Below, one piece after another: positions 18,411-29,337 of a stretch of 64,000 nucleotides of DNA. How positions within the stretch are numbered: position 1 is the stretch's first letter; each line of letters opens with the position of its first letter. The stretch comes from Aureispira anguillae. GTDB taxonomy: Bacteria; Bacteroidota; Bacteroidia; Chitinophagales; Saprospiraceae. The notes beneath the pieces are model-generated. The model was not told the origin of the DNA, ran no database searches, and was given only the letters and a program-made list of their open reading frames with translations. The stretch is from NCBI RefSeq assembly GCF_026000115.1, contig NZ_AP026867.1:2449501-2513500 (forward strand), written 5' to 3'. The position numbers were made by a program, and so were the translations under genes.

Positions 18411-18824
18411 CTAAAAGGTTTTCTCTTCAATTTTTTCAATCGCAGCCCTCCATTCGTTGGGCACACGCACACTATGCCCTTTTTTGACATCAATTAAGAC
18501 AATTGTACATTCTGCAATAGCAGCCAAACCAACCTTGGGGCTAATCATTTCGCAGGACATCTTAAGGCTAGCATGCCCCAAACTAGTAACCCCTACCTTC
18601 ATGGTTAGTGTATCAGGATAAACAACAGGTTTTTTGTAACTACAGGAAATATTAGCTAACACAGGAATTTCGTTTCCATGAAAACCTGCCAATTCAGGAA
18701 TCGCATCAAAATATTTTACCCTAGCCGATTCAAAATACTTTAAGTATACCGTATTATTAACATGCCCAAAAGCATCCATATCCCCCCAAGCTACGGGTTG
18801 TTCTACATTTATTTTTAAATCCAT
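18411..18824 (-). CDS. Acyl-CoA thioesterase, 4HBT hotdog family
   Basis: A 137-residue single hotdog protein. The N-terminal motif GDMDAFGHVNN (Asp17, His21) is the 4-hydroxybenzoyl-CoA thioesterase signature with the catalytic Asp. The following YLKYFESARVKYF helix and the central strand GHASLKM fit YbgC/FadM-like thioesterases. It hydrolyses acyl-CoA in the cytoplasm; chain preference cannot be read from sequence. It heads the minus-strand run that contains the monooxygenase. Confidence 0.87.
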   Translation of the reverse strand: MDLKINVEQPVAWGDMDAFGHVNNTVYLKYFESARVKYFDAIPELAGFHGNEIPVLANISCSYKKPVVYPDTLTMKVGVTSLGHASLKMSCEMISPKVGLAAIAECTIVLIDVKKGHSVRVPNEWRAAIEKIEEKTF

Positions 18825-19240
18825 TCGATCAATTTAACAACATTATTCTATATCTAATTAGCTACTATACAGACCCTTTTGCTGGCTCAAAAACCTAGTA
18901 AATTTACCTAACAACATCATTACTGCAAAGAAGCAATGAAACTACCATGCAGTAGCAACGCAGTTAAATTTTCAGAGTACTGCAATAAGTAATAGAACAA
19001 AATTAACAAAGAGTTTTACTTTTTTGAGAAATAATTTATTTTTCGGAAACTAAATTTTATTATTTGGTGTAGTATATATAAATAATAGTTTTACTTCTAA
19101 CCTTAATAGCTAAACTATTAAACCAGTAAAATAAATTTTACCTTTTTATCTTCCTTTCTTAACTTTAACAGTATATTTACTATAGATAGGAGGATAACGC
19201 TTATCCCAAAACATTTACTACAATCCCAAAACATGAACCA
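18825..19240. other. Divergent intergenic region before the flotillin locus
   Basis: About 416 bases of AT-rich DNA separate the thioesterase from the YqiJ-like gene. It holds a degenerate copy (around 18940-18962, CCATGCAGTAGCAACGCAGTTAA-like) of a short repeat also found in the MITE-like elements, and a 12-base direct repeat ATCCCAAAACAT at 19203-19214 and 19223-19234, just before the start codon. It probably contains the promoter of the locus. Confidence 0.4.
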
Positions 19241-19969
19241 ATGGGCGAACTAATCACTGCTGCATTTTCTACCTCAAATCTCTTTTTGACCTTTTTATTA
19301 GGTCTTGTAACGCTATACTGGCTAAGCGTTATTATTGGTGCTATTGGCATGGATTCTTTTGATATAGACTTGGACTTAGACGCTGATATTGATGTAGACG
19401 TAGACATTGATGTGGATGCCGATATTGATGTCGATGCAGACGTAGATGCTGATGTGGACGCCGATGCCGATGCCAATACAGCTGTAGGGCAAGTTGGGAG
19501 TGGTCTAATGATTGGAGCTTTGCGCTTTTTAAATTTTGGACGAGTGCCATTTATGGTACTTTTATCGACCATTGTTTTGTCCATGTGGTCTATATCCATC
19601 TATTGCAACCACGATGCGAGTTGGATCAACCCAGGCAACTCTACTTCAATGGCTGCGCTTTTATTTTTGCCCAATTTGATTGCCAGTCTATTGCTGTCCA
19701 AGATTTTTACGGCTCCTTTGGTTCCTGTTTTTGCCAAACTCAATACTGCTGAAAAAGCTTTGGTTATTGATGGTAAGGTTGGAACCCTAATGACCAGCAT
19801 CAAAGAAGAAGAAGTAGGTCAATTAAAAATTGACATTAATGGGTCTATTGTTTCTCTTAGTGTAAAATCTAATGATGGAAAAAAAATTCAGAAGGGGGAT
19901 CGAGTGGTTGTCGTTGAAAAACTAGAGAATGGAAAGGCTTATATTGTGCAAAAAATTGAGCATCATTAG
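19241..19969 (+). CDS. YqiJ-like membrane protein with C-terminal OB-fold
   Basis: The 242-residue protein has membrane segments near residues 13-36, 103-121 and 139-163 and a C-terminal OB-fold-like beta region (~175-240, ending KGDRVVVVEKLENGKAYIV). The LNFGRVP segment before the second helix matches LNIGRLP of E. coli YqiJ, the partner of flotillin YqiK. Between helix 1 and 2, residues 41-77 are a strict Asp-aliphatic alternation (19 Asp), an insert I do not know from the family. It heads the flotillin locus. It probably stabilises or regulates flotillin assemblies in the membrane. Confidence 0.78.
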   Translation: MGELITAAFSTSNLFLTFLLGLVTLYWLSVIIGAIGMDSFDIDLDLDADIDVDVDIDVDADIDVDADVDADVDADADANTAVGQVGSGLMIGALRFLNFGRVPFMVLLSTIVLSMWSISIYCNHDASWINPGNSTSMAALLFLPNLIASLLLSKIFTAPLVPVFAKLNTAEKALVIDGKVGTLMTSIKEEEVGQLKIDINGSIVSLSVKSNDGKKIQKGDRVVVVEKLENGKAYIVQKIEHH

Positions 19970-20024
19970 TCACTGTGTTTAGCTCTTTTTCTTTATTTTT
20001 CTCATAGCCCTAAAATGTTCTAAT

Positions 20025-20699
20025 ATGCTCCCCACTATCCTTATGGTTCTTGGCATAGGATTCTTTATTATACTCATTGGCTTTTTTCTATTGATAGCTC
20101 GTGTTCACAAAAAAGTACCACAGGGCAAAGCCTTAATACGTACTGGTTTTGGAGGCGCAAAGGTTGCCTTAGATTCGGGCATCTTTGTCATTCCTATTCT
20201 ACACAAGGTAGAGGAAATAGATATTTCGCTCCAAACAATCGTCGTTGAGGAAGAAATCATCACCAAAGAAGAGGAACGTATAAGCATGAGGGTAGTTTTT
20301 TATCTTCGTATCAATAAAGATCGTAATTATACGGTAGAAGTAGCCCAAACAGTAGGTTGCGCTCGTGCCTCTAGCCCTGAAACCTTGCATGAATTATTCT
20401 ACCCAAAATGCCTAGAAGCCATTAAAACAGTTGCTACTGGATTTACAATCAAAGAATTGCGCAAAGAACGAGAAGCCTTCAAAAAAGGAATTTTACAAAC
20501 TATAGGAGTCGATCTAAACGGTTATATTTTGGATGACTGTGCCATTGAACAAATTCGCAGGATTCCCAATCCTAATTTAGAGCAGGCAGTCTTTGTGCTA
20601 ATAGATCATAAAGCGCCTTTGAAAAAAGGTGAAAAAGTCCTTGTTGTAGATCAAATAAATGATGGAAAATCTTATATTGTACGGCGAATCATAGAATAG
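20025..20699 (+). CDS. Mini-SPFH protein with OB-fold-like tail (chimera)
   Basis: The 224-residue protein starts like the flotillin encoded downstream (MLPTILMVLGIG, then QGKALIRTGFGGAKVALDSG) and keeps the SPFH domain to about residue 175, then lacks the long coiled coil. Its last ~27 residues (KKGEKVLVVDQINDGKSYIV) resemble instead the end of the upstream YqiJ-like protein. It therefore looks like a fusion of the head of one neighbour to the tail of the other. A segment near residues 71-86 (VVEEEIITKEEER) differs from the flotillin copy and is more stomatin-like. It is probably membrane anchored and able to cap or modulate flotillin oligomers; that is inference. Confidence 0.75.
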   Translation: MLPTILMVLGIGFFIILIGFFLLIARVHKKVPQGKALIRTGFGGAKVALDSGIFVIPILHKVEEIDISLQTIVVEEEIITKEEERISMRVVFYLRINKDRNYTVEVAQTVGCARASSPETLHELFYPKCLEAIKTVATGFTIKELRKEREAFKKGILQTIGVDLNGYILDDCAIEQIRRIPNPNLEQAVFVLIDHKAPLKKGEKVLVVDQINDGKSYIVRRIIE

Positions 20700-21099
20700 A
20701 CATCTACCAAAATAGCTTTTTCCTGTTTCTGATTTTTATTAAAAAGATCTATCCGTTCATAGACTTAAAATTTATAGAAATTTGATCCATGAAAAATCAA
20801 TACTTACTTTATCCACTATTCTGGAACTTTTTGGCTTAACAAAGCATTATATAATTATAGCTTTACTACTATAAAAAATAGTATTACTCTTAAATATAGA
20901 TACCCTAAATTAATGAACACGAACAACACTACTAACTTAGCTTATTTGTGGATACGTATGCCTTGCTCTTTTATTCTACAATACGATCCTCCTGACCCTT
21001 AGTGGTCAGAATCCACCACATAAAAACAAATTATAAAACAAGTATATTTCGCTTCTATAGCGCAATTATATTTCCTTCTCAAACTCAAAATTAATACAA
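20700..21099. other. 400-bp spacer before the flotillin gene
   Basis: No gene is seen. The length suggests an own promoter for the flotillin; TAGCTTTA at 20858-20865 is a weak -7 candidate. A short inverted repeat CTGACC/GGTCAG lies at 20992-20997 and 21004-21009. Confidence 0.3.
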
Positions 21100-23226
21100 A
21101 TGCTACCTACAATTCTTATGGTCCTTGGTATAGGACTCTTAGTTATACTTATCGGCTTCTTTTTATTGGTAGCCCGTGCCCATAGAAAAGTACCTCAAGG
21201 TAAGGCATTAATTCGTACTGGATTTGGTGGTGCGAAAGTAGCCTTAGATTCGGGTATGTTTGTCATCCCTATTCTACACAAAGTAGAAGAAATGGACATC
21301 TCATTAAAAACAATAGAAGTACATCGTGCAGGTTCTGAAGGTTTGATCTGTAAAGACAATATGCGTGCTGACATCAAAGTGGTATTTTTTGTTCGTGTTA
21401 ACAAAGATAAAGATCATGTTGTTGAAGTAGCACAAACCATTGGTTGTCTCCGTGCCTCTGAGCAAGCTACCCTTAATAGTCTATTTGACGCTAAGTTTTC
21501 AGAAGCTTTAAAAACAGTTGGTAAAGGATTTGACTTTGTTGACCTTTATACCGAACGTGAAGAATTCAAAAAAGGAATCCTCCAAACCATTGGCACTGAC
21601 TTAAATGGTTATATCTTGGACGACTGTGCCATTGATTATTTAGAACAAACCTCTCTTGCTGATCTAGATCAAAAAAATATTTTAGATGCTCAAGGTATCA
21701 AAAAGATTGAAGAGCTTACTTCTAAAGAGCAAGAAAGCACCAACCAAATTCGTCGTAAACGTGAGCAAGTTATCAAAGAACAAGACGTTGAAGCTAAAAA
21801 GAACATCCTCCGCTTGGAAAAACAACAAATCGAGGAAGAGCAAAAGCAAAAACGTGAAATTGCTGAACTAACTACCGAGCAAGAAAATGCAGCGAAACAA
21901 GTTGTAATTAGCAAAAACTTGGAAACGGAGCTTATCCAGAAACAATCTGAACAAAAATTAGGTGAAGCTGAAGAGGATAAACAACGTCAGATTATTTTGG
22001 CTAGATTGAACAAAGAAGAGTTAGAGAAAGTTCAACAGCAATTGGTTCAAACCGAAGAACAAAAAGCAATCGAAAACCGTGAAAAAGTGGTTGGTATTGC
22101 AAAAATTGAAAAGGAGAAAATCTTAGAAGAAAACAAACGTGACATCCAAGTTATCATCAAGGAAAGAAAAGCGGAAGAAAAGAAAACAGTAGAAGAAGAT
22201 CAAAAAATTGAAGATGTCAAACAGATTGCTGCTGCTGAAAGATCTAGAAAAGTAGCTGAAATTGAAGCTTCTAAAGAGGCTGAAATGCAAAAAATCCTCC
22301 AAACTCGCAAAGCAGAAGCGGATAAATTATCAGCAGAAGTAAAAGCTCAACAGGTTGTTATTGAGGCGGATGCTAAAAAAGCAGCTTCTCAAAAAGAAGC
22401 GGAGGCTCGTAAGATTAGTGCGGAGGCATTGGCTGCGGAGGAAGCAACAGTTGGTTTGGCAGAAGCTGATGTAATGAAAGCAAAAGCGGAAGCAAAAGAA
22501 ATGGAAGGTACCACTGAGGCTAATATCCTACAGAAAAAAGCGGAAGCAGAGTCTAAGGCTATTCAACTAAAAGCAGAAGCAGAGCGTGTAAAAGGGCTTG
22601 CTGAGGCGGAAGTTGTCAAAGAGAAAGGTAATATTGATGCTACCGTAACCGAACAAAAAGGACTAGCAGAAGCAAAAGTAATTGAGCAAAAATTAAGCTC
22701 TGAAGCAAAAGGTATTGAAGCGAAAGCAAATGCCATGAAGTTGTTGGATGGTGTTGGCAAGGATCACGAAGAATTCAAACTCAAATTGGCGCAACAAAAA
22801 GACATCAAATTGGCAGAAATTCAAGCTCAATTGGGTATTGCTGAGTCTCAAGCTCGTGTATTGGCGGCTGCCTTGCAACAAGCTAAAATCGACATCGTGG
22901 GTGGTGAGACTAAATTCTTTGATAGCATCATTAATGCAATTAACAAAGGTAAGTCTATTGATCGAATGATTGGCAATAGTGATAATTTACAAGCCATTAA
23001 AGGTGCTTTGTTAGGGAATGGTGATGATAATTTAATTGCTAGAATTGGTAGTTTTGTAGATCACTATGGTATCAGTTCTGAATCGGTCAAAAACTTAACG
23101 TTATCCGCTTTGCTGTCTAAAATTTATGCAAAGGCTACAGGTGACGACAAAGATGTTGTTATGAGCCTAATTGAGACGGTTAGCCGTCTTGGCATGGGTG
23201 GCGAAGATGCTGGAAAACTGCTATAA
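21100..23226 (+). CDS. Flotillin-family protein (YqiK-like)
   Basis: The 708-residue protein has one N-terminal membrane segment (residues ~3-26), an SPFH/Band-7 domain (~30-190) and a very long Glu/Ala/Lys coiled coil (~200-580) with AEA and KAEAE repeats typical of flotillins. A C-terminal ~130-residue region follows (GNSDNLQAIKGALLG...). The core motifs RTGFGGAKV, LICKDNMRADIKVVFFVRV and VAQTIG match E. coli YqiK. Flotillins oligomerise into ring or dome scaffolds at the membrane. It lies between the mini-SPFH paralogue and the giant ATPase, all on one strand. The first ~175 residues are close to the paralogue, also at DNA level. Confidence 0.88.
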   Translation: MLPTILMVLGIGLLVILIGFFLLVARAHRKVPQGKALIRTGFGGAKVALDSGMFVIPILHKVEEMDISLKTIEVHRAGSEGLICKDNMRADIKVVFFVRVNKDKDHVVEVAQTIGCLRASEQATLNSLFDAKFSEALKTVGKGFDFVDLYTEREEFKKGILQTIGTDLNGYILDDCAIDYLEQTSLADLDQKNILDAQGIKKIEELTSKEQESTNQIRRKREQVIKEQDVEAKKNILRLEKQQIEEEQKQKREIAELTTEQENAAKQVVISKNLETELIQKQSEQKLGEAEEDKQRQIILARLNKEELEKVQQQLVQTEEQKAIENREKVVGIAKIEKEKILEENKRDIQVIIKERKAEEKKTVEEDQKIEDVKQIAAAERSRKVAEIEASKEAEMQKILQTRKAEADKLSAEVKAQQVVIEADAKKAASQKEAEARKISAEALAAEEATVGLAEADVMKAKAEAKEMEGTTEANILQKKAEAESKAIQLKAEAERVKGLAEAEVVKEKGNIDATVTEQKGLAEAKVIEQKLSSEAKGIEAKANAMKLLDGVGKDHEEFKLKLAQQKDIKLAEIQAQLGIAESQARVLAAALQQAKIDIVGGETKFFDSIINAINKGKSIDRMIGNSDNLQAIKGALLGNGDDNLIARIGSFVDHYGISSESVKNLTLSALLSKIYAKATGDDKDVVMSLIETVSRLGMGGEDAGKLL

Positions 23227-23233
23227 AATTTTC

Positions 23234-23267
23234 GATGGAGTTGCACTTAATTTTATGCAGCTCCATC
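23234..23267 (+). terminator. Hairpin after the flotillin gene
   Basis: GATGGAGTTGCA at 23234-23245 pairs with TGCAGCTCCATC at 23256-23267, with one G-T pair, eight bases after the stop codon. No clean T-run follows, so it may be only a partial terminator or an mRNA stabiliser between the flotillin and ATPase genes. Confidence 0.5.
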
Positions 23268-23502
23268 ATTCTTTAACTTTCTCCATTTATGGCTGATGAT
23301 TTTATAAAAAGCTAGAAAAATTATTCCTATTCATCTCTAAATTAATCAAGGAAATTGGTGATCATATTGCCAATCCAAGAATAGTGGTATAAGCATTACT
23401 AAAAAAGCTGTTCAAGCTATTTTTAGGCGTTTTATTCGCTCCATCACCTCCCATAAACCTAAATAAAATTTCTAGCAATACCCTAAATAAATAATTTCAA
23501 CA

Positions 23503-26500
23503 ATGGCTGACGATAATAAAAATATAGAAGAAACAGTAGCGCAAGAAGATAGTACACAGTTAGAAAGTGGTACTTATGAGATCATTAAAAGTCGCCTCAA
23601 TAAAAGTGGCGATAATCTCCGCCAACGATTAGAACAACTCAATGCAGAACGCAAAAAGGTGTTCGGCTCCATAGAAATGCAGCTGATCAGCAATCAACGC
23701 ATTGAAACGCATCACGAATGTATTGCTAGAGATATTTTTGCTTTGGGCAATGTTTGTATCTTTGGGTACAACATTCGTATGGGACTCAAAAATATTGAAT
23801 TACAAGATGTTTTTAGTATTTATGAATTTAAGGACGATCATAGCTTCAAGGCGATTGATTTAGACTTTTTAACCGTAGGCAATGAGAAATTTGTCTCGGA
23901 TTTTAAAAGTTTATACCGCTATTCCAAAGAGGTTTACTTTCTTAAATTTGCCAAGGATAAAAACGATCCCTTCTTTTATATGATTTTTAAAGATGGGAAT
24001 AGCGAAAAGACCTTCAAATGGGAAATTAGAGACAAAAAACTGTTTTACGACTCTACACCTGGTGATAAAAAATACAAATACCCCAATCAGTTTGAATTTA
24101 AGTGGGAATCGGTACGCCTAGAAATGTATCGTCAAGGAGAACATCCTCATATTTCTATTTTGGATAAAGTTTTTGTAGAGACAGTTGGTGGGGATTTGAC
24201 CATCAAAATTGAGGACAATACAGATACGGGCAAAGGAATTTATGCAGAAGATGTTAAACATGCCAACCAGAAAATTAGTGATGCAACCGTTAGTTATGCA
24301 GACTTGGATAACCTTATTGCCATTCGAATCAAGCCTTATCAAGAGGACTTTAGATATTTCATCTATAATGTAAAATTACAGACCGTACAACGGGTTGATG
24401 CGCTTGAAAATTCAGGGGTTTTGTTGCCTGGCAAGCAAGGTTTGGTTTTTTCCAATGGGTTTTATCTACAAACAGGTGATTTTAAAATGTTTGATAAAAC
24501 TTCGGGTACAGGAAATTTATTTGAACATCGAATTCAATCCCCCAACGGAGAAGATCACCTTTATGTATTTCACAACCCCAATGATGGTTCTTATATATTA
24601 TTGTCTTACAATGTAATTGAGCAAACGGTTAATACGCCGATTGTTTGCCATGGGTATACTTTATTCCCAAATGGCGAGCTATGTTACTTTAGAAGTGAAG
24701 AGGCCAAAACATCGCACCATTTGATTCAAATATGGCAAACGCCTTATATCAAAGGAAAAATCATTCCTTCGGATCACATGGATTCTTTTCTTTATAAAAT
24801 TAGCAACAAAGACATTGTTCGTGCTATGGCTGAGTGTCAAGAATTGTTAAGCCTCTTGGGCAAAGATGATACTTATAATGATTTGTACTATGATCTGAAT
24901 AAACGAGCTAATGTTCTCTTAGATTCTTATTATTGGATTGCAAGCGAAGAAGCCTTTAACTTGGGTGCTCCCCTAACCGATATTCGTACTTCTGCCAATA
25001 CAGCCATTGATGAATTTGAAAAGGTTCAAAGCATCAAAAAGAGTACGAGGGAAGCCATCCGTGAAACACAAAAGAATGCGGTTGCTTTATTTAAGGAAAT
25101 CAATTCAACCTCTTATCTAAAAATTGATCAATTTGTCCAGCACTTAGCCGATCTTCGGGGAATTCGTGGAGAAGTTATTTCGCTTAGAGAATTGCGTTAT
25201 ACGGATATTCCGCTTATTGAGGAGTTAGAAAGTCAAGCCGCTGAAATCAACAGTACCTTATCTAATAATTGTGTAGAATTCTTGCTCAAAGAAGATGCCT
25301 TACAACCTTATTTGGATCGAGTCTCGGAGGCGCAAGGTGAAATTGAGCAGGTTGAAACGGCTAGGCAGGGCAAACAGTTGGAGGAACGCATTGATGCCAT
25401 TGGTAAGGAATTAGAATTATTGATTGAAATTGTTTCGAATTTAAAAATCGAGGATGCTACTCAAACTACTCGAATAATCGACAACATTACTGCTATTTTT
25501 GCTACGCTAAATCAAGCAAAAGCTGGCATCAAACGCCGTTTGCGTGACTTAACAGGAGCAGAAGCTGTCGCTGAATTTGCAGCACAGTCAAAATTACTAG
25601 ATCAAGGTTTAATCAATTATCTGGATATTGCTGATACGGTCACCAAGTGTGATGAGTATTATACCAAAATGATGATACAGATTGAGGAACTGGAGAGTAA
25701 GTTTGCGGAATTCGATGAGTTTATCATTAAAATAGCGGATAAACGTGAAGAAATTAATAGTGCTTTTGAATCTCGTCGTTTGTCTATTATTGAATCCATC
25801 AATAAACGTACTTCTGCCCTACAGAGTGCTGCGGAGAGAAACTTAAAAGGAATTCAAAATCGTGCTAAAAACTTTAAGGAGGTATCAGAGATCAATGGCT
25901 TTTTTGCTTCTGACCTAATGATTGAAAAGGTTCGGGACACCATCCAAAAGTTAATTGATCTGGACGACACCAATAAGGCGGATGATATTCAAACCAAATT
26001 AAAGACGATTAAGGAGGATGCTATTCGCCAATTGAGGGACAAAAAAGATCTTTTTTCTGGCGATGGAAATTCCATCAAGTTTGGTAAACATTTCTTTTCG
26101 GTTAACAAGCAAAAACTGGGCTTGTCAATGACCCTAAAAGATAGCCAGATGTATTATCACCTCACAGGAACTGGTTTCTATGAGGAAGTAACCGATCCCG
26201 ATTTTTTGACCACCAAAACGGTTTGGGAACAAGGGATCGTTTCTGAAAACAATGAGGTTTATAGAGCAGAATACCTAGCCTATATCGCCTTTAAAAAATT
26301 ACAGACTGAAAACCTTGATTTGCTTTCGGAGGAAGTGCTGCCGTACGTTCAACAATTGATTAACCAACGTGCCACTAAAGAAGAGGGATACAGCAAGGGA
26401 ATTCACGATCTGGATGCCGCCAAAATGTTGGAATCTTTGCTTTATTTATCCAAGCATATTGATTTATTAGTTTTTGATGCGGATGCGAGGGCAATGGCTA

Positions 26501-28473
26501 ATTTATATTGGAGTAAATTTATAACGGAGGAAAATAAATCTACGTTTGACAAACAACTAAAAAGTGCAGGAATTATCCTTGAGGTCTTCCCTAGAACGCA
26601 TGAGTTTGATTTTTTGCTTCAAAACTTAGAAGAAGAATTGACTGGGTTTGCTCATGAGACTAAATTATTTGAGCCTTATTTGGCTCCAATGGCTGCCCGT
26701 TACTTATTCAAAGAAATCTCACGTCACAATCATTTTATAATAAGTGGGGATGCCCACGATCTGCAAGTTGCTTTTCAGCAATTTTTAGAGCAGAAAAGTG
26801 CAATGAAGCATTTTTCTACAGCGCTTCAATCCTTGGAAAATAACTTGATTGAACAATACCAATTAACCAAAAAATGGTTGAATGCTTTTGTAGAACAAAG
26901 TGACAATGCCAATTATGCCAATTATGTCAATGAAACGGTTACCTTAACTCTTACCAACAATCATTTAGAAAGTCATGTGGTTAATGTCAAAACACAGCAA
27001 GAGTTAACGGGTTTGCATGGCGCTCACAATGTTGTCGGAAAAGGTGGGGTTTATCTATTGGATTATAATGAGTTTATGCAAAAACTAGATCATTATACAC
27101 GTGAAATTGTTACGCAATATGAGAAATTTGTTGCCATGAAACGCCAATTGGCCAACCAATTTAAGGAAGACTTGCGCTTGGGTGAATTCCAACCTAGGGT
27201 GCTCAGTTCTTTTGTTCGTAACAAATTAATTGATCAATTGTACTTGCCTATTTTTGGAGATAACTTAGCCAAGCAAATTGGTACTGTTGGTGATACTACT
27301 CGTACCGATAGAATGGGGATGTTGCTTTTGATTTCGCCTCCTGGTTATGGAAAAACGACCTTAATGGAATATGTCGCCGATCGTCTGGGCTTGATCTTTA
27401 TGAAAATTAATGGTCCTGCCATTGGGCATCATGTTATTTCCTTAGATCCGAGCGAAGCTACCAATGCAGCGGCCTCCAAAGAATTGGAAAAATTAAACTT
27501 GGCGCTAGAAATGGGAGACAATATCATGATTTATTTAGATGATATTCAGCATTGTAATCCTGAGTTCTTACAGAAGTTTATTTCCTTAACAGATGGTCAA
27601 CGAAAAATTGAAGGGATTTACAAAGGTGTCACCAAAACTTATGACTTGCGAGGAAAACGAGTTTGTGTTGTTATGGCTGGTAACCCTTATACCGAGAGTG
27701 GGGATAAATTCCAAGTTCCTGATATGTTAGCCAATCGTTCTGATATTTATAATCTAGGAGATATTATTGGAGATACCAAAGATATTTTTGAATTGAGTTA
27801 CATCGAAAATTCATTAACTTCCAATTCTATTCTTCAAAAAATGGCGACCAAAAGTTCTAAAGATATTTATGGAGTGGTCAAATTTGCACAAACGGGAAGT
27901 AGAGAGGGCATTGATTTTGAAGGCAACCATACCAACCAAGAACTTAACGAGTATGTGGAGGTCATCAAACGAATGTTAACGGTTCGGGATGCAATTTTGA
28001 AGGTGAACTTAGAGTACATTCGCTCGGCTGCTATGGAGGATTCTCATCGCACAGAGCCTTCCTTCAAGCTCCAAGGTTCTTATCGTAATATGAACAAATT
28101 GGCTGAAAAAATTACGCCGATTACCAACGATGAGGAATTAAAAACACTAATTATTTCGCATTATGAAGGAGAGTCTCAAACCTTGACCTCTGGTGCGGAA
28201 TCGAATATGCTGAAATTTAAGGAGATGATTGGTGCTTTAACCGAAGAAGAAAGTAATCGCTGGGAGGAAATCAAAAGAGCCTTTAACAAAGATCGAATGT
28301 TACAAGGGAGCAAGGACGACCCAATGGTTCAAGTTGTGGCACAACTGTCTCAATTCTCAGATCACCTCAAAGATATTCACCATTCCATTCAAGAAGGTGT
28401 TGAGAAGGGCGTTAATATGACCAACTCTAAGCCTGCTAAAAAATCGGGTGGTATTAGTTTCCGAAAATCGTAA
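23503..28473 (+). CDS. Giant AAA ATPase ('DNA repair ATPase' type)
   Basis: The 1656-residue protein has an N-terminal region (~30-510) of beta-rich repeats, a central helical/coiled-coil part (~510-900), another helical region, and an AAA domain near 1240-1480. Walker A is SPPGYGKTT (about residue 1280) and Walker B is IMIYLDDIQ (about 1341); a MoxR-like GNPY segment follows. The layout resembles proteins annotated 'DNA repair ATPase' with an N-terminal DUF3686 domain; that name is from memory and the repair role is not established by this context. There is no signal or membrane helix. Next to flotillins it more plausibly remodels a membrane-associated complex. Confidence 0.8.
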   Translation: MADDNKNIEETVAQEDSTQLESGTYEIIKSRLNKSGDNLRQRLEQLNAERKKVFGSIEMQLISNQRIETHHECIARDIFALGNVCIFGYNIRMGLKNIELQDVFSIYEFKDDHSFKAIDLDFLTVGNEKFVSDFKSLYRYSKEVYFLKFAKDKNDPFFYMIFKDGNSEKTFKWEIRDKKLFYDSTPGDKKYKYPNQFEFKWESVRLEMYRQGEHPHISILDKVFVETVGGDLTIKIEDNTDTGKGIYAEDVKHANQKISDATVSYADLDNLIAIRIKPYQEDFRYFIYNVKLQTVQRVDALENSGVLLPGKQGLVFSNGFYLQTGDFKMFDKTSGTGNLFEHRIQSPNGEDHLYVFHNPNDGSYILLSYNVIEQTVNTPIVCHGYTLFPNGELCYFRSEEAKTSHHLIQIWQTPYIKGKIIPSDHMDSFLYKISNKDIVRAMAECQELLSLLGKDDTYNDLYYDLNKRANVLLDSYYWIASEEAFNLGAPLTDIRTSANTAIDEFEKVQSIKKSTREAIRETQKNAVALFKEINSTSYLKIDQFVQHLADLRGIRGEVISLRELRYTDIPLIEELESQAAEINSTLSNNCVEFLLKEDALQPYLDRVSEAQGEIEQVETARQGKQLEERIDAIGKELELLIEIVSNLKIEDATQTTRIIDNITAIFATLNQAKAGIKRRLRDLTGAEAVAEFAAQSKLLDQGLINYLDIADTVTKCDEYYTKMMIQIEELESKFAEFDEFIIKIADKREEINSAFESRRLSIIESINKRTSALQSAAERNLKGIQNRAKNFKEVSEINGFFASDLMIEKVRDTIQKLIDLDDTNKADDIQTKLKTIKEDAIRQLRDKKDLFSGDGNSIKFGKHFFSVNKQKLGLSMTLKDSQMYYHLTGTGFYEEVTDPDFLTTKTVWEQGIVSENNEVYRAEYLAYIAFKKLQTENLDLLSEEVLPYVQQLINQRATKEEGYSKGIHDLDAAKMLESLLYLSKHIDLLVFDADARAMANLYWSKFITEENKSTFDKQLKSAGIILEVFPRTHEFDFLLQNLEEELTGFAHETKLFEPYLAPMAARYLFKEISRHNHFIISGDAHDLQVAFQQFLEQKSAMKHFSTALQSLENNLIEQYQLTKKWLNAFVEQSDNANYANYVNETVTLTLTNNHLESHVVNVKTQQELTGLHGAHNVVGKGGVYLLDYNEFMQKLDHYTREIVTQYEKFVAMKRQLANQFKEDLRLGEFQPRVLSSFVRNKLIDQLYLPIFGDNLAKQIGTVGDTTRTDRMGMLLLISPPGYGKTTLMEYVADRLGLIFMKINGPAIGHHVISLDPSEATNAAASKELEKLNLALEMGDNIMIYLDDIQHCNPEFLQKFISLTDGQRKIEGIYKGVTKTYDLRGKRVCVVMAGNPYTESGDKFQVPDMLANRSDIYNLGDIIGDTKDIFELSYIENSLTSNSILQKMATKSSKDIYGVVKFAQTGSREGIDFEGNHTNQELNEYVEVIKRMLTVRDAILKVNLEYIRSAAMEDSHRTEPSFKLQGSYRNMNKLAEKITPITNDEELKTLIISHYEGESQTLTSGAESNMLKFKEMIGALTEEESNRWEEIKRAFNKDRMLQGSKDDPMVQVVAQLSQFSDHLKDIHHSIQEGVEKGVNMTNSKPAKKSGGISFRKS

Positions 28474-28486
28474 TGTTTACCATTAT

Positions 28487-28530
28487 GGCTAATGAACGAA
28501 TTGCTAGATTTAGTAATTCGCTCATTAGTC
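28487..28530. terminator. Bidirectional hairpin terminator
   Basis: A 20-bp imperfect stem (GGCTAATGAACGAATTGCTA at 28487-28506 against TAGTAATTCGCTCATTAGTC at 28511-28530) closes the ATPase gene and the convergent lipoprotein gene. Confidence 0.65.
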
Positions 28531-28538
28531 GTAAATAA

Positions 28539-29201
28539 TTATTCCGTCACCTCTTCATTTCGAATTTCCTTCATAGATCCATCTTCTTGCCTTTCTTGAA
28601 CAACAGATTGATAGGTAGATTCTGAGGAGTAAGTCCGATTCTCAATGCTCTTTTTGATAAATTTTCCATCCTGAACGCCATAAATAGTTTCGGTATAAGT
28701 AGCAGCAGATCCCCTTTCTGAAGATTTAATCTCTTGTTTTTGAGGATCAACCGTTGGCAAAGATAAATTCATCTCTGTATTGCGTTCAAATTGCTGGTTT
28801 TTGGAGTTATAAATCCAATAAGCGTAATACACATTAACATTTCCCATTGCTTCTGGCATTCTCATGTCGGGAATTCCATCAAAATTTAGATCTTCAAAAG
28901 TAGGTTGCTCAAAAAAAGGATTTCCATCTTGGTAGGGCAATTCTAAGCCCTTTATAATCTGAAAAATTTCAGTCGTTCCCTTCTTTCTAATTTCAATTGC
29001 CGTAATTATTTCTTGATCGGTATTAATGATATTTTTACCTTCAAACTCCAATTTTTCAGGCTTTTCTTCCTCCATATTTTTCTCTGGCTGTTCTACTACT
29101 TCCTTGATTTCTGTAACATTTGCTTCTTTAGTTTCAGTATTACAAGTCATCAATAAAAAAAGCAGTGGTATCCATAAGCAAAATGATATTCTTGTTGTCA
29201 T
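28539..29201 (-). CDS. Lipoprotein with calcium-type DxDG loop
   Basis: A 220-residue lipoprotein (MTTRISFCLWIPLLFLLMTCNTE, Cys20) with a Glu/Lys-rich linker. The segment DLNFDGIPDMR is an FG-GAP/EF-like calcium loop, and the following YYAYWIYNSKNQQFERN pattern resembles the XAC2610-type periplasmic family, where NxDGxxD loops precede a beta domain. The function of that family is not clear to me. It is convergent with the giant ATPase gene and separated from it by a hairpin. Confidence 0.65.
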   Translation of the reverse strand: MTTRISFCLWIPLLFLLMTCNTETKEANVTEIKEVVEQPEKNMEEEKPEKLEFEGKNIINTDQEIITAIEIRKKGTTEIFQIIKGLELPYQDGNPFFEQPTFEDLNFDGIPDMRMPEAMGNVNVYYAYWIYNSKNQQFERNTEMNLSLPTVDPQKQEIKSSERGSAATYTETIYGVQDGKFIKKSIENRTYSSESTYQSVVQERQEDGSMKEIRNEEVTE

Positions 29202-29337
29202 TTTTGATTTGTTTATAGTTTTTGATTTAAATATTAGATACGCTATAGCCTTAAAACAACGTTAATAAAGTTTTTAAAGCTACAATTTTTCTATGAATGT
29301 TGTATTTTGGTTCGTATAAATAAAAAAAGAACAATAC

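What the first reader, a model, noticed from the sequence alone, without database searches (positions are those of the whole stretch)
19241..28473. Flotillin-plus-giant-AAA ATPase locus with an extra mini-SPFH gene
Four genes on one strand encode a YqiJ-like OB-fold membrane protein, a 224-aa SPFH-only protein, a YqiK-like flotillin and a 1656-aa AAA ATPase of the 'DNA repair ATPase' type. YqiJ-YqiK pairing is known; the coupling to a giant ATPase and to a second, short SPFH protein suggests a membrane-scaffold remodelling machine rather than DNA repair. The arrangement as a four-gene set is, as far as I know, not described as a system.
Basis: partly seen in the sequence, partly recalled or inferred. 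Interest (0 to 1): 0.85.

Follow-up and report, generated by a model that had tools for sequence, protein, structure and literature searches.

The report
Flotillin–AAA operon with chimeric mini-flotillin
A relative of the bacterium Aureispira carries a known but little-studied gene set (a flotillin scaffold, its membrane partner and a giant ATP-driven motor) to which its genus added a short flotillin whose tail comes from the partner protein; short flotillins sit in the same slot in a few other relatives, which hints at a job for scaffold subunits without a wall.

Summary
The four genes are real, at the stated coordinates. Three of them (YqiJ-like, YqiK-like flotillin, DUF3686/AAA ATPase) are the short form of a system already in print (Ravi et al. 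2024, PMC11237479). In 77 DUF3686 loci with at least 5 kb upstream, 71 have a flotillin and 70 flotillin plus YqiJ upstream on the same strand; 27 also have CesT, PspA and an XRE regulator. This genome keeps two CesT-PspA dyads elsewhere. 'DNA repair ATPase' is so far only a name. New is the mini-SPFH: not SPFH-only but a chimera, TM+SPFH of the neighbouring flotillin plus a tail homologous to the end of YqiJ's OB domain. It is intact in 5 of 9 genus genomes, decayed in one, and its protein sequence is constrained; its first ~62 residues follow the genome's own flotillin, as gene conversion would give. Tail-less short SPFHs fill the same slot in four genomes of two other families. A conserved small ORF lies between mini and flotillin. 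Best reading: a coiled-coil-less subunit that co-assembles with the flotillin and opens or limits the scaffold; this mechanism is inferred. New variant of a known kind.

The parts
19241..19969 (+). YqiJ/DUF1449-like membrane protein with C-terminal OB (NfeD-like) domain, 242 aa
   Evidence: (PF21001 5.4e-05; NfeD 0.021, below its cut-off)
19352..19480 (+). Asp-rich alternating linker (DxD repeats) of the YqiJ-like protein, before its second hydrophobic stretch; tandem repeat in the DNA
20025..20699 (+). mini-SPFH (224 aa): TM helix + SPFH, no coiled coil
20025..20210 (+). first 62 codons of mini-SPFH, 88.7% identical to the genome's own flotillin (56.9% in codons 63-185); candidate gene-conversion tract
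20604..20690 (+). mini-SPFH tail (residues 194-222), homologous to the end of the YqiJ OB domain
   Evidence: E 4.4e-06 with a profile built without the four mini-bearing Aureispira loci; tail strands in the model, pLDDT 57-70
20865..20885 (+). inverted-repeat-like stretch inside a block also seen in G006, G008 and G001 but not in G004; role unknown
20913..21002 (+). conserved small ORF, 29 aa, between mini-SPFH and flotillin
21100..23226 (+). YqiK-like flotillin (TM + SPFH + long charged, coiled-coil-like part), 708 aa
23503..28473 (+). giant AAA+ ATPase (DUF3686, 'DNA repair ATPase'), 1656 aa
23614..24933 (+). DUF3686 match (residues 38-477); modelled as a beta-rich domain followed by helices
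27322..28086 (+). AAA+ module: Pfam AAA match 27322-27684 and on to the conserved QGSYR motif

Best explanation
The locus is a form of the PspA/flotillin/AAA+ envelope-maintenance system in which the PspA part lies elsewhere. Inferred working: the YqiK-like flotillin forms a membrane-attached ring or dome; the YqiJ-like protein binds it through its membrane helices and OB domain; the DUF3686 ATPase uses ATP to extract or remodel membrane-associated proteins or PspA (ESCRT-III-type) polymers at that scaffold, much as FtsH works with HflK/C. PspA and its CesT/Tir partner come from two dyads elsewhere in the genome. The mini-SPFH co-assembles with the flotillin through its anchor and SPFH face but has no coiled coil, so each copy leaves a gap in the wall (a door) or limits ring closure; its YqiJ-type tail imitates or competes with YqiJ at its docking site. 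Shown: gene set, conserved neighbourhood, chimera, constraint on the protein, place of the dyads. Inferred: every step of the mechanism.
For: Flotillin upstream on the same strand in 71 of 77 loci with at least 5 kb upstream, flotillin+YqiJ in 70, regulator+CesT+PspA in 27. Two CesT-PspA dyads elsewhere in this genome. AAA+ motifs invariant in 25 aligned sequences. Mini: a profile of YqiJ tails from 21 loci without the four mini-bearing Aureispira ones finds the four mini tails (E 4.4e-06 to 5.7e-04) and no other non-YqiJ ORF below 0.89; dN/dS 0.080, 0.164 and 0.188 in the three pairs with finite dS; intact in 5 of 9 genus genomes; its N-terminal tract follows its own flotillin more than the middle does. 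The model resembles prohibitin, HflK/C, flotillin, stomatin and QmcA. Short SPFHs in the same slot in four genomes of two other families. [quoted passage not shown]
Against: No interaction, expression or complex was tested. dS of 1.6-2.9 (and infinite in the three pairs with G004) makes dN/dS rough. The mini changes faster than the flotillin (dN 0.23-0.47 against 0.04-0.12 in the same pairs) and is dispensable: absent in G002, decayed in G001, probably absent in G007, and G005 shows neither mini, flotillin nor ATPase. It is present in few loci outside the genus. In G003/G008 three other genes, in G006 one, separate flotillin and ATPase. The tail has low model confidence. In G008 own and another genome's flotillin tie as nearest to the mini's N-terminal tract. 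Five of 77 loci have the ATPase with no flotillin nearby.
Confidence: 0.55

Rival explanations
1. The mini-SPFH is the left-over of a local duplication (yqiJ-yqiK doubled, then a deletion fused the start of one yqiK to the end of the second yqiJ) with no job of its own.
For: The order yqiJ / yqiK-start+yqiJ-end / yqiK is what such events would leave; patchy presence and a decayed copy in G001; fast protein change.
Against: Four distinct intact sequences with dN/dS 0.08-0.19 where it can be computed; short SPFHs in the same slot in two other families.
Confidence: 0.25
2. The ATPase is a DNA-repair enzyme and the flotillin only its membrane anchor.
For: The product name in records and the Pfam description 'ATPase involved in DNA repair'; weak RuvB matches at the P-loop; a 'LexA family' name for the Hymenobacter regulator; a Shewanella mutant of a YqiK homologue was H2O2-sensitive and gave more drug-resistant colonies (PMC1468410, abstract and passages).
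Against: Constant neighbours are membrane proteins and, in 30 of 77 loci, PspA. In five annotated regions no repair gene. The P-loop matches reach many AAA+ proteins, NVL, Rix7 and VCP first, over 33-67 residues.
Confidence: 0.05
3. Part of an anti-phage or anti-plasmid defence island.
For: Presence on plasmids of several phyla; variable genes beside or inside the set, among them a calpain-family protease and a 203-aa protein with a sub-threshold abortive-infection match (0.049); in L008 an upstream ORF whose start looks like Cas9 (likeness recalled, not searched).
Against: The four window proteins have only one sub-threshold PADLOC match (mad8, 0.032, P-loop); the set is co-inherited with PspA in many loci. 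Neighbours in other loci were not scanned for defence genes.
Confidence: 0.07

Closest known systems
CesT/Tir-PspA + YqiJ/YuaF + TM-band-7-flotillin + novel AAA+ ATPase operons (Ravi et al. 2024, PMC11237479, section 19)
   Same: The same three core proteins, also in forms without the PspA dyad; ATPase described with beta-propeller repeats and coiled coil, in agreement with the model here
   Different: No short SPFH or small ORF is mentioned in the section read; LexA, S24 and XRE do not occur in its main text. In this genome the CesT-PspA dyads lie elsewhere
E. coli yqiJ-yqiK / B. subtilis yuaF-yuaG (SPFH2-NfeD2; PMC2636767, passages)
   Same: Membrane protein with OB domain next to a flotillin; operons with two SPFH genes are described
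   Different: In the passages read there is no giant ATPase and no truncated SPFH with a piece of the NfeD-like partner
FtsH-HflK/C and prohibitin-m-AAA
   Same: SPFH cage that works with a AAA+ machine; open and closed cages (PMC13220708, PMC12624060, passages)
   Different: Different AAA+ family, no protease family matched in the DUF3686 protein; HflK/C-FtsH contacts are periplasmic, flotillins are taken to face the cytoplasm (recalled)
QmcA-YbbJ (PDB 8z5g)
   Same: SPFH-NfeD complex; the mini model matches QmcA (rank 18, E 2.3e-08)
   Different: SPFH and NfeD are separate chains there; here a piece of the NfeD-like partner is fused to an SPFH domain

Membership tests
PspA/flotillin/AAA+ system of Ravi et al. 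[quoted passage not shown]
PspA/flotillin/AAA+ system of Ravi et al. 2024 | CesT/Tir-PspA dyad in the same operon (full form) | tested here: not met
   Not in the locus; two dyads elsewhere in the genome. The paper describes forms without it, so membership is claimed for the abbreviated form only
PspA/flotillin/AAA+ system of Ravi et al. 2024 | ATPase with beta-propeller repeats and coiled coil | tested here: inconclusive
   Model: beta-rich 60-412, then helices. Many of the best Foldseek matches are propeller proteins (recalled from their names), but query TM-scores are at most 0.22 in the 50 rows shown
SPFH/Band-7 superfamily (mini) | SPFH domain | tested here: met
   Band_7 1.4e-19; fold matches
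Flotillin (mini) | long coiled-coil C-terminal part | tested here: not met
   Ends after the SPFH domain with a YqiJ-like tail
SPFH/Band-7 superfamily (tail-less short proteins of L033, L155, L169, L173) | SPFH domain | tested here: inconclusive
   Profile scores 126-206 bits for L155, L169, L173, not used to build the profile, and 174.5 for L033, which was; blastp of the window flotillin to L033 29% over 160 aa, 59 bits; Pfam found no family for L033, the others were not scanned
DNA-repair system | conserved neighbourhood with repair genes | tested here: inconclusive
   None seen in five annotated regions; other loci only tested with six profiles
Known anti-phage systems (PADLOC) | significant profile match of the four window proteins | tested here: not met
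AAA+ ATPase | Walker A and B, sensor-1 Asn, sensor-2-like Arg (motif names recalled) | tested here: met
   SPPGYGKT, DD, MAGNPYT and QGSYR invariant in 25 sequences

The most novel reading that the evidence does not exclude
SPFH scaffolds that work with AAA+ motors have, perhaps more than once, gained a purpose-made wall-less subunit that keeps a door open in the cage. In Aureispira this subunit is a flotillin-YqiJ chimera kept compatible with its flotillin by gene conversion, with a co-inherited micropeptide as a possible further part.
Probability: 0.25. Interest if true: 0.75.

Novelty: new variant of a known kind. Interest (0 to 1): 0.5.

Why it matters
How membrane proteins get into and out of closed SPFH cages is an open question; HflK/C seems to solve it by opening between subunits. 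A natural short SPFH in the operon of a flotillin and a AAA+ motor gives a genetic handle on that question. The neighbourhood data also suggest that proteins named 'DNA repair ATPase' with DUF3686 should be looked at first as flotillin partners.

Tried and rejected
One origin of all short SPFHs against several: not settled. In the tree (8 minis, 33 flotillins) the four Aureispira minis form one clade inside a starred clade of Aureispira flotillins (98/97) and starred branches force at least two changes, but holding all eight minis together is not rejected (p-AU 0.17). With only the segment outside the candidate conversion tract (mini_L169 left out for its long branch) the place of the minis is unresolved (p-AU 0.283; starred branches force only one change). 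An earlier tree (5 minis) had two very long rows. One search ended with an error when its tree was shown.

Small ORF: differences by codon position are 9/10/13, 7/10/15 and 7/7/14 for three pairs, and changed codons are mostly non-synonymous (14 to 5, 13 to 7, 12 to 7), so coding is not proven by this; the case rests on shared start, place, length and motif. The G004 relative has E 0.68, no better than chance matches elsewhere (0.36-2.1). The pattern also occurs elsewhere in the genomes, and its control (pattern read backwards) in some. The stretch at 20865 was searched with a pattern taken from the alignment, so its exact match is by construction; it is the only match in the window, and a stricter script pattern found it in the window alone of six sequences. 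Rfam found nothing in 18800-29300. Promoter- and terminator-like sites were at chance level (33 against 30.7; 8 against 6.4). The regulator's Peptidase_S24 match is below its cut-off (5.9e-04, one protein) and no catalytic pair stands out in the consensus of 27, so self-cleavage is not claimed. Loci L003, L007, L009 and L011 (fragments) were left out of the neighbourhood count. L010 and L196 look like the same contig; both fall in the dropped group.
Full report
What is there. Four ORFs of 242, 224, 708 and 1656 aa lie on the + strand at the stated coordinates. Pfam gives YqiJ_N for the first, Band_7 for the second, nothing for the third, and DUF3686, DUF7902 and AAA for the fourth. The window belongs to a 7.8-Mb genome in three contigs; its ATPase is 88-90% identical to those of Aureispira sp. 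CCB-QB1 and two Aureispira MAGs, 73-80% in further Aureispira records.

How common is the set. PF12458 (DUF3686) is found in 11 of 60 genomes of the 'relatives' sample, 10 of 395 of the phylum sample, 39 of 396 of the order sample (each of these counts the window's own genome), 49 of 291 of a second order, centre included, and 0 of 14 control genomes. tblastn in the plasmid collection gave 12 records; I fetched 10, from Bacteroidota, Pseudomonadota, Actinomycetota and Deinococcota. I labelled ORFs with six profiles built here in 91 loci: 31 held earlier and 60 fetched. The 60 are all 34 new hits and 26 of the 48 new hits, chosen by me for spread. 90 loci hold the ATPase; 13 with under 5 kb upstream were dropped. 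In the other 77, within 9.5 kb, 71 have a flotillin upstream on the same strand and 70 flotillin plus YqiJ; in one more (L169) the YqiJ-mini-flotillin genes run the other way; five (L012, L031, L163, L170, L177) have none. PspA is upstream in 30, CesT in 27, and regulator, CesT and PspA together in 27. In all nine fetched plasmid loci outside Bacteroidota the flotillin is next to the ATPase.

Prior art. Ravi et al. 2024 (PMC11237479; section 19 read whole, passages; [quoted passage not shown] This fits: the window genome has two PspA genes, each beside a CesT/Tir gene, far from the window, and 9 of 9 genus genomes have a CesT_Tir_1 match, in G001 only a partial one. 'DUF3686' is in no paper of the library, 'DNA repair ATPase' with 'flotillin' in none; phrases for short or truncated SPFH gave four papers which by their titles are about other things (listing only).

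The ATPase. Identity of the window protein to 40 homologues is 32-74% over the whole length, and higher in residues 1050-1560 than in DUF3686 for 38 of 40. SPPGYGKT, DD, MAGNPYT and QGSYR are invariant in 25 aligned sequences. A model of residues 1-620 (mean pLDDT 84.3) has a beta-rich part 60-412 followed by long helices. Many of its best Foldseek matches are propeller proteins (as I recall them from their names), but query TM-scores are at most 0.22 in the 50 rows shown, so a propeller is consistent with this, not shown. Sequence matches to solved structures cover little more than the P-loop.

The mini-SPFH. In the genus it is intact in G000, G003, G004, G006 and G008 (G003 and G008 score alike, so four distinct sequences), left as fragments, one with two stops, in G001, and absent in G002, where about 90 bp separate yqiJ and flotillin. 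In G007 the contig ends just upstream of the flotillin in what looks like the end of YqiJ, so it is probably absent. G005 has no match to mini, flotillin or DUF3686. A profile of the last 75 residues of YqiJ from 21 loci, the four mini-bearing Aureispira loci left out, finds the four mini tails at 4.4e-06, 5.5e-06, 8.3e-06 and 5.7e-04; the next ORF not labelled YqiJ is at 0.89. Shuffled tails do not reach the real local-alignment scores in 1000 shuffles each (71 against at most 42, 81/49, 93/45, 81/52), and the own flotillin scores 28-34. So the protein is a flotillin-YqiJ chimera. Its first 62 residues are 88.7, 88.7, 77.4 and 83.9% identical to the flotillin of the same genome (window, G006, G008, G004), residues 63-185 only 56.9, 59.3, 41.5 and 50.4%. 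For the first tract the own flotillin is nearest in three genomes (in G006 by 1.6 points) and ties with that of G006 in G008. For G004 its synonymous distance to the own flotillin is 1.09, while the whole-gene distances of G004's flotillin to five others are 4.55 or infinite; that is what gene conversion would leave, on a short tract. dN/dS between minis is 0.080, 0.164 and 0.188 where dS is finite (2.9, 2.0, 1.6) and cannot be computed for the three pairs with G004. From codon 186 on the three finite pairs differ less at synonymous sites (pS 0.36-0.47 against 0.63-0.83 before), which I cannot explain.

Structure of the mini. The model (mean pLDDT 83.6; 13 aligned sequences) has a helix at 2-27, the SPFH fold and tail strands in a region of pLDDT 57-70. 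The best Foldseek matches are prohibitin, HflK/C, human flotillin, stomatin, erlin and QmcA-YbbJ (E 7.2e-10 to 2.3e-08 in the first 18 rows).

Short SPFHs elsewhere. L033 and L155 (one genus, family f21) and L169 and L173 (family f12) have 180-184-aa SPFH-like proteins, without the tail, between YqiJ and flotillin, ending near the border to the coiled coil. Pfam gave no family for the L033 protein. Whether they share an origin with the Aureispira minis is open.

Other variable parts. Between flotillin and ATPase G003 and G008 carry ORFs of 611, 913 (Peptidase_C2, calpain type, 5.6e-17) and 203 aa; G006 carries one of 606 aa whose start resembles the 611-aa one; the window none. Between mini and flotillin lies a small ORF of 29 aa, with relatives of 29, 31, 28 and 22 aa in G006, G008, G004 and G001. 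A search with the G006 peptide finds it in place in G008 and G003 (1.0e-07), G000 (5.4e-04) and G001 (1.4e-03); the G004 match (0.68) is at the level of chance matches.

How it may work. HflK/C forms a cage around FtsH; in an open, nautilus-like form the opening arises from the coiled coils of four subunits, and a form locked shut impairs recovery from tobramycin (PMC13220708, passages). Prohibitins also show open and closed forms (PMC12624060, passages). By analogy the flotillin would form the wall, the DUF3686 protein the motor and PspA the membrane polymer. A subunit with the same anchor and SPFH face but no coiled coil would leave a gap. That the tract at the membrane is the one kept most like the flotillin agrees with co-assembly; the YqiJ-like tail agrees with a role at YqiJ's docking site. 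These are inferences; no interaction was tested.

Verdict. Observation confirmed; interpretation partly supported; a new variant (chimeric mini-SPFH, PspA dyads elsewhere, small ORF) of a system already described by comparative genomics.

Noticed in passing
window 20913-21002: Conserved 29-aa small ORF between mini-SPFH and flotillin, with relatives in the other mini-bearing Aureispira genomes and in G001; 27 bp upstream of it lies an inverted-repeat-like stretch in a conserved block.
   Followed up: partly
L002:4683-9966 (same genes in L025, L030): Three genes, one for a calpain-family cysteine protease, lie between flotillin and the DUF3686 ATPase in two Aureispira genomes.
   Followed up: partly
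window 19352-19480: The YqiJ-like protein has a long alternating-Asp stretch; similar stretches in the other Aureispira YqiJs shown and in two other members of the family (L156, L160). The 132-aa ORF on the other strand (19201-19599) overlaps it and is probably its shadow.
   Followed up: partly
L008, L033, L065-L073, L076, L155, L178, L182-L189, L191-L194, L213: A divergent XRE-type regulator (named LexA family in Hymenobacter) precedes CesT-PspA in 27 of 77 loci.
   Followed up: partly
window 20580-20699: The last ~40 codons of the mini differ unusually little at synonymous sites between three genomes, as if DNA or RNA were constrained there too.
   Followed up: no
L012, L031, L163, L170, L177: DUF3686 ATPase genes with no flotillin within the upstream sequence held.
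   Followed up: no
L008:1-3470: An ORF whose start looks like Cas9 (recalled, not searched) lies upstream of the regulator of a full CesT-PspA-YqiJ-flotillin-ATPase operon.
   Followed up: no
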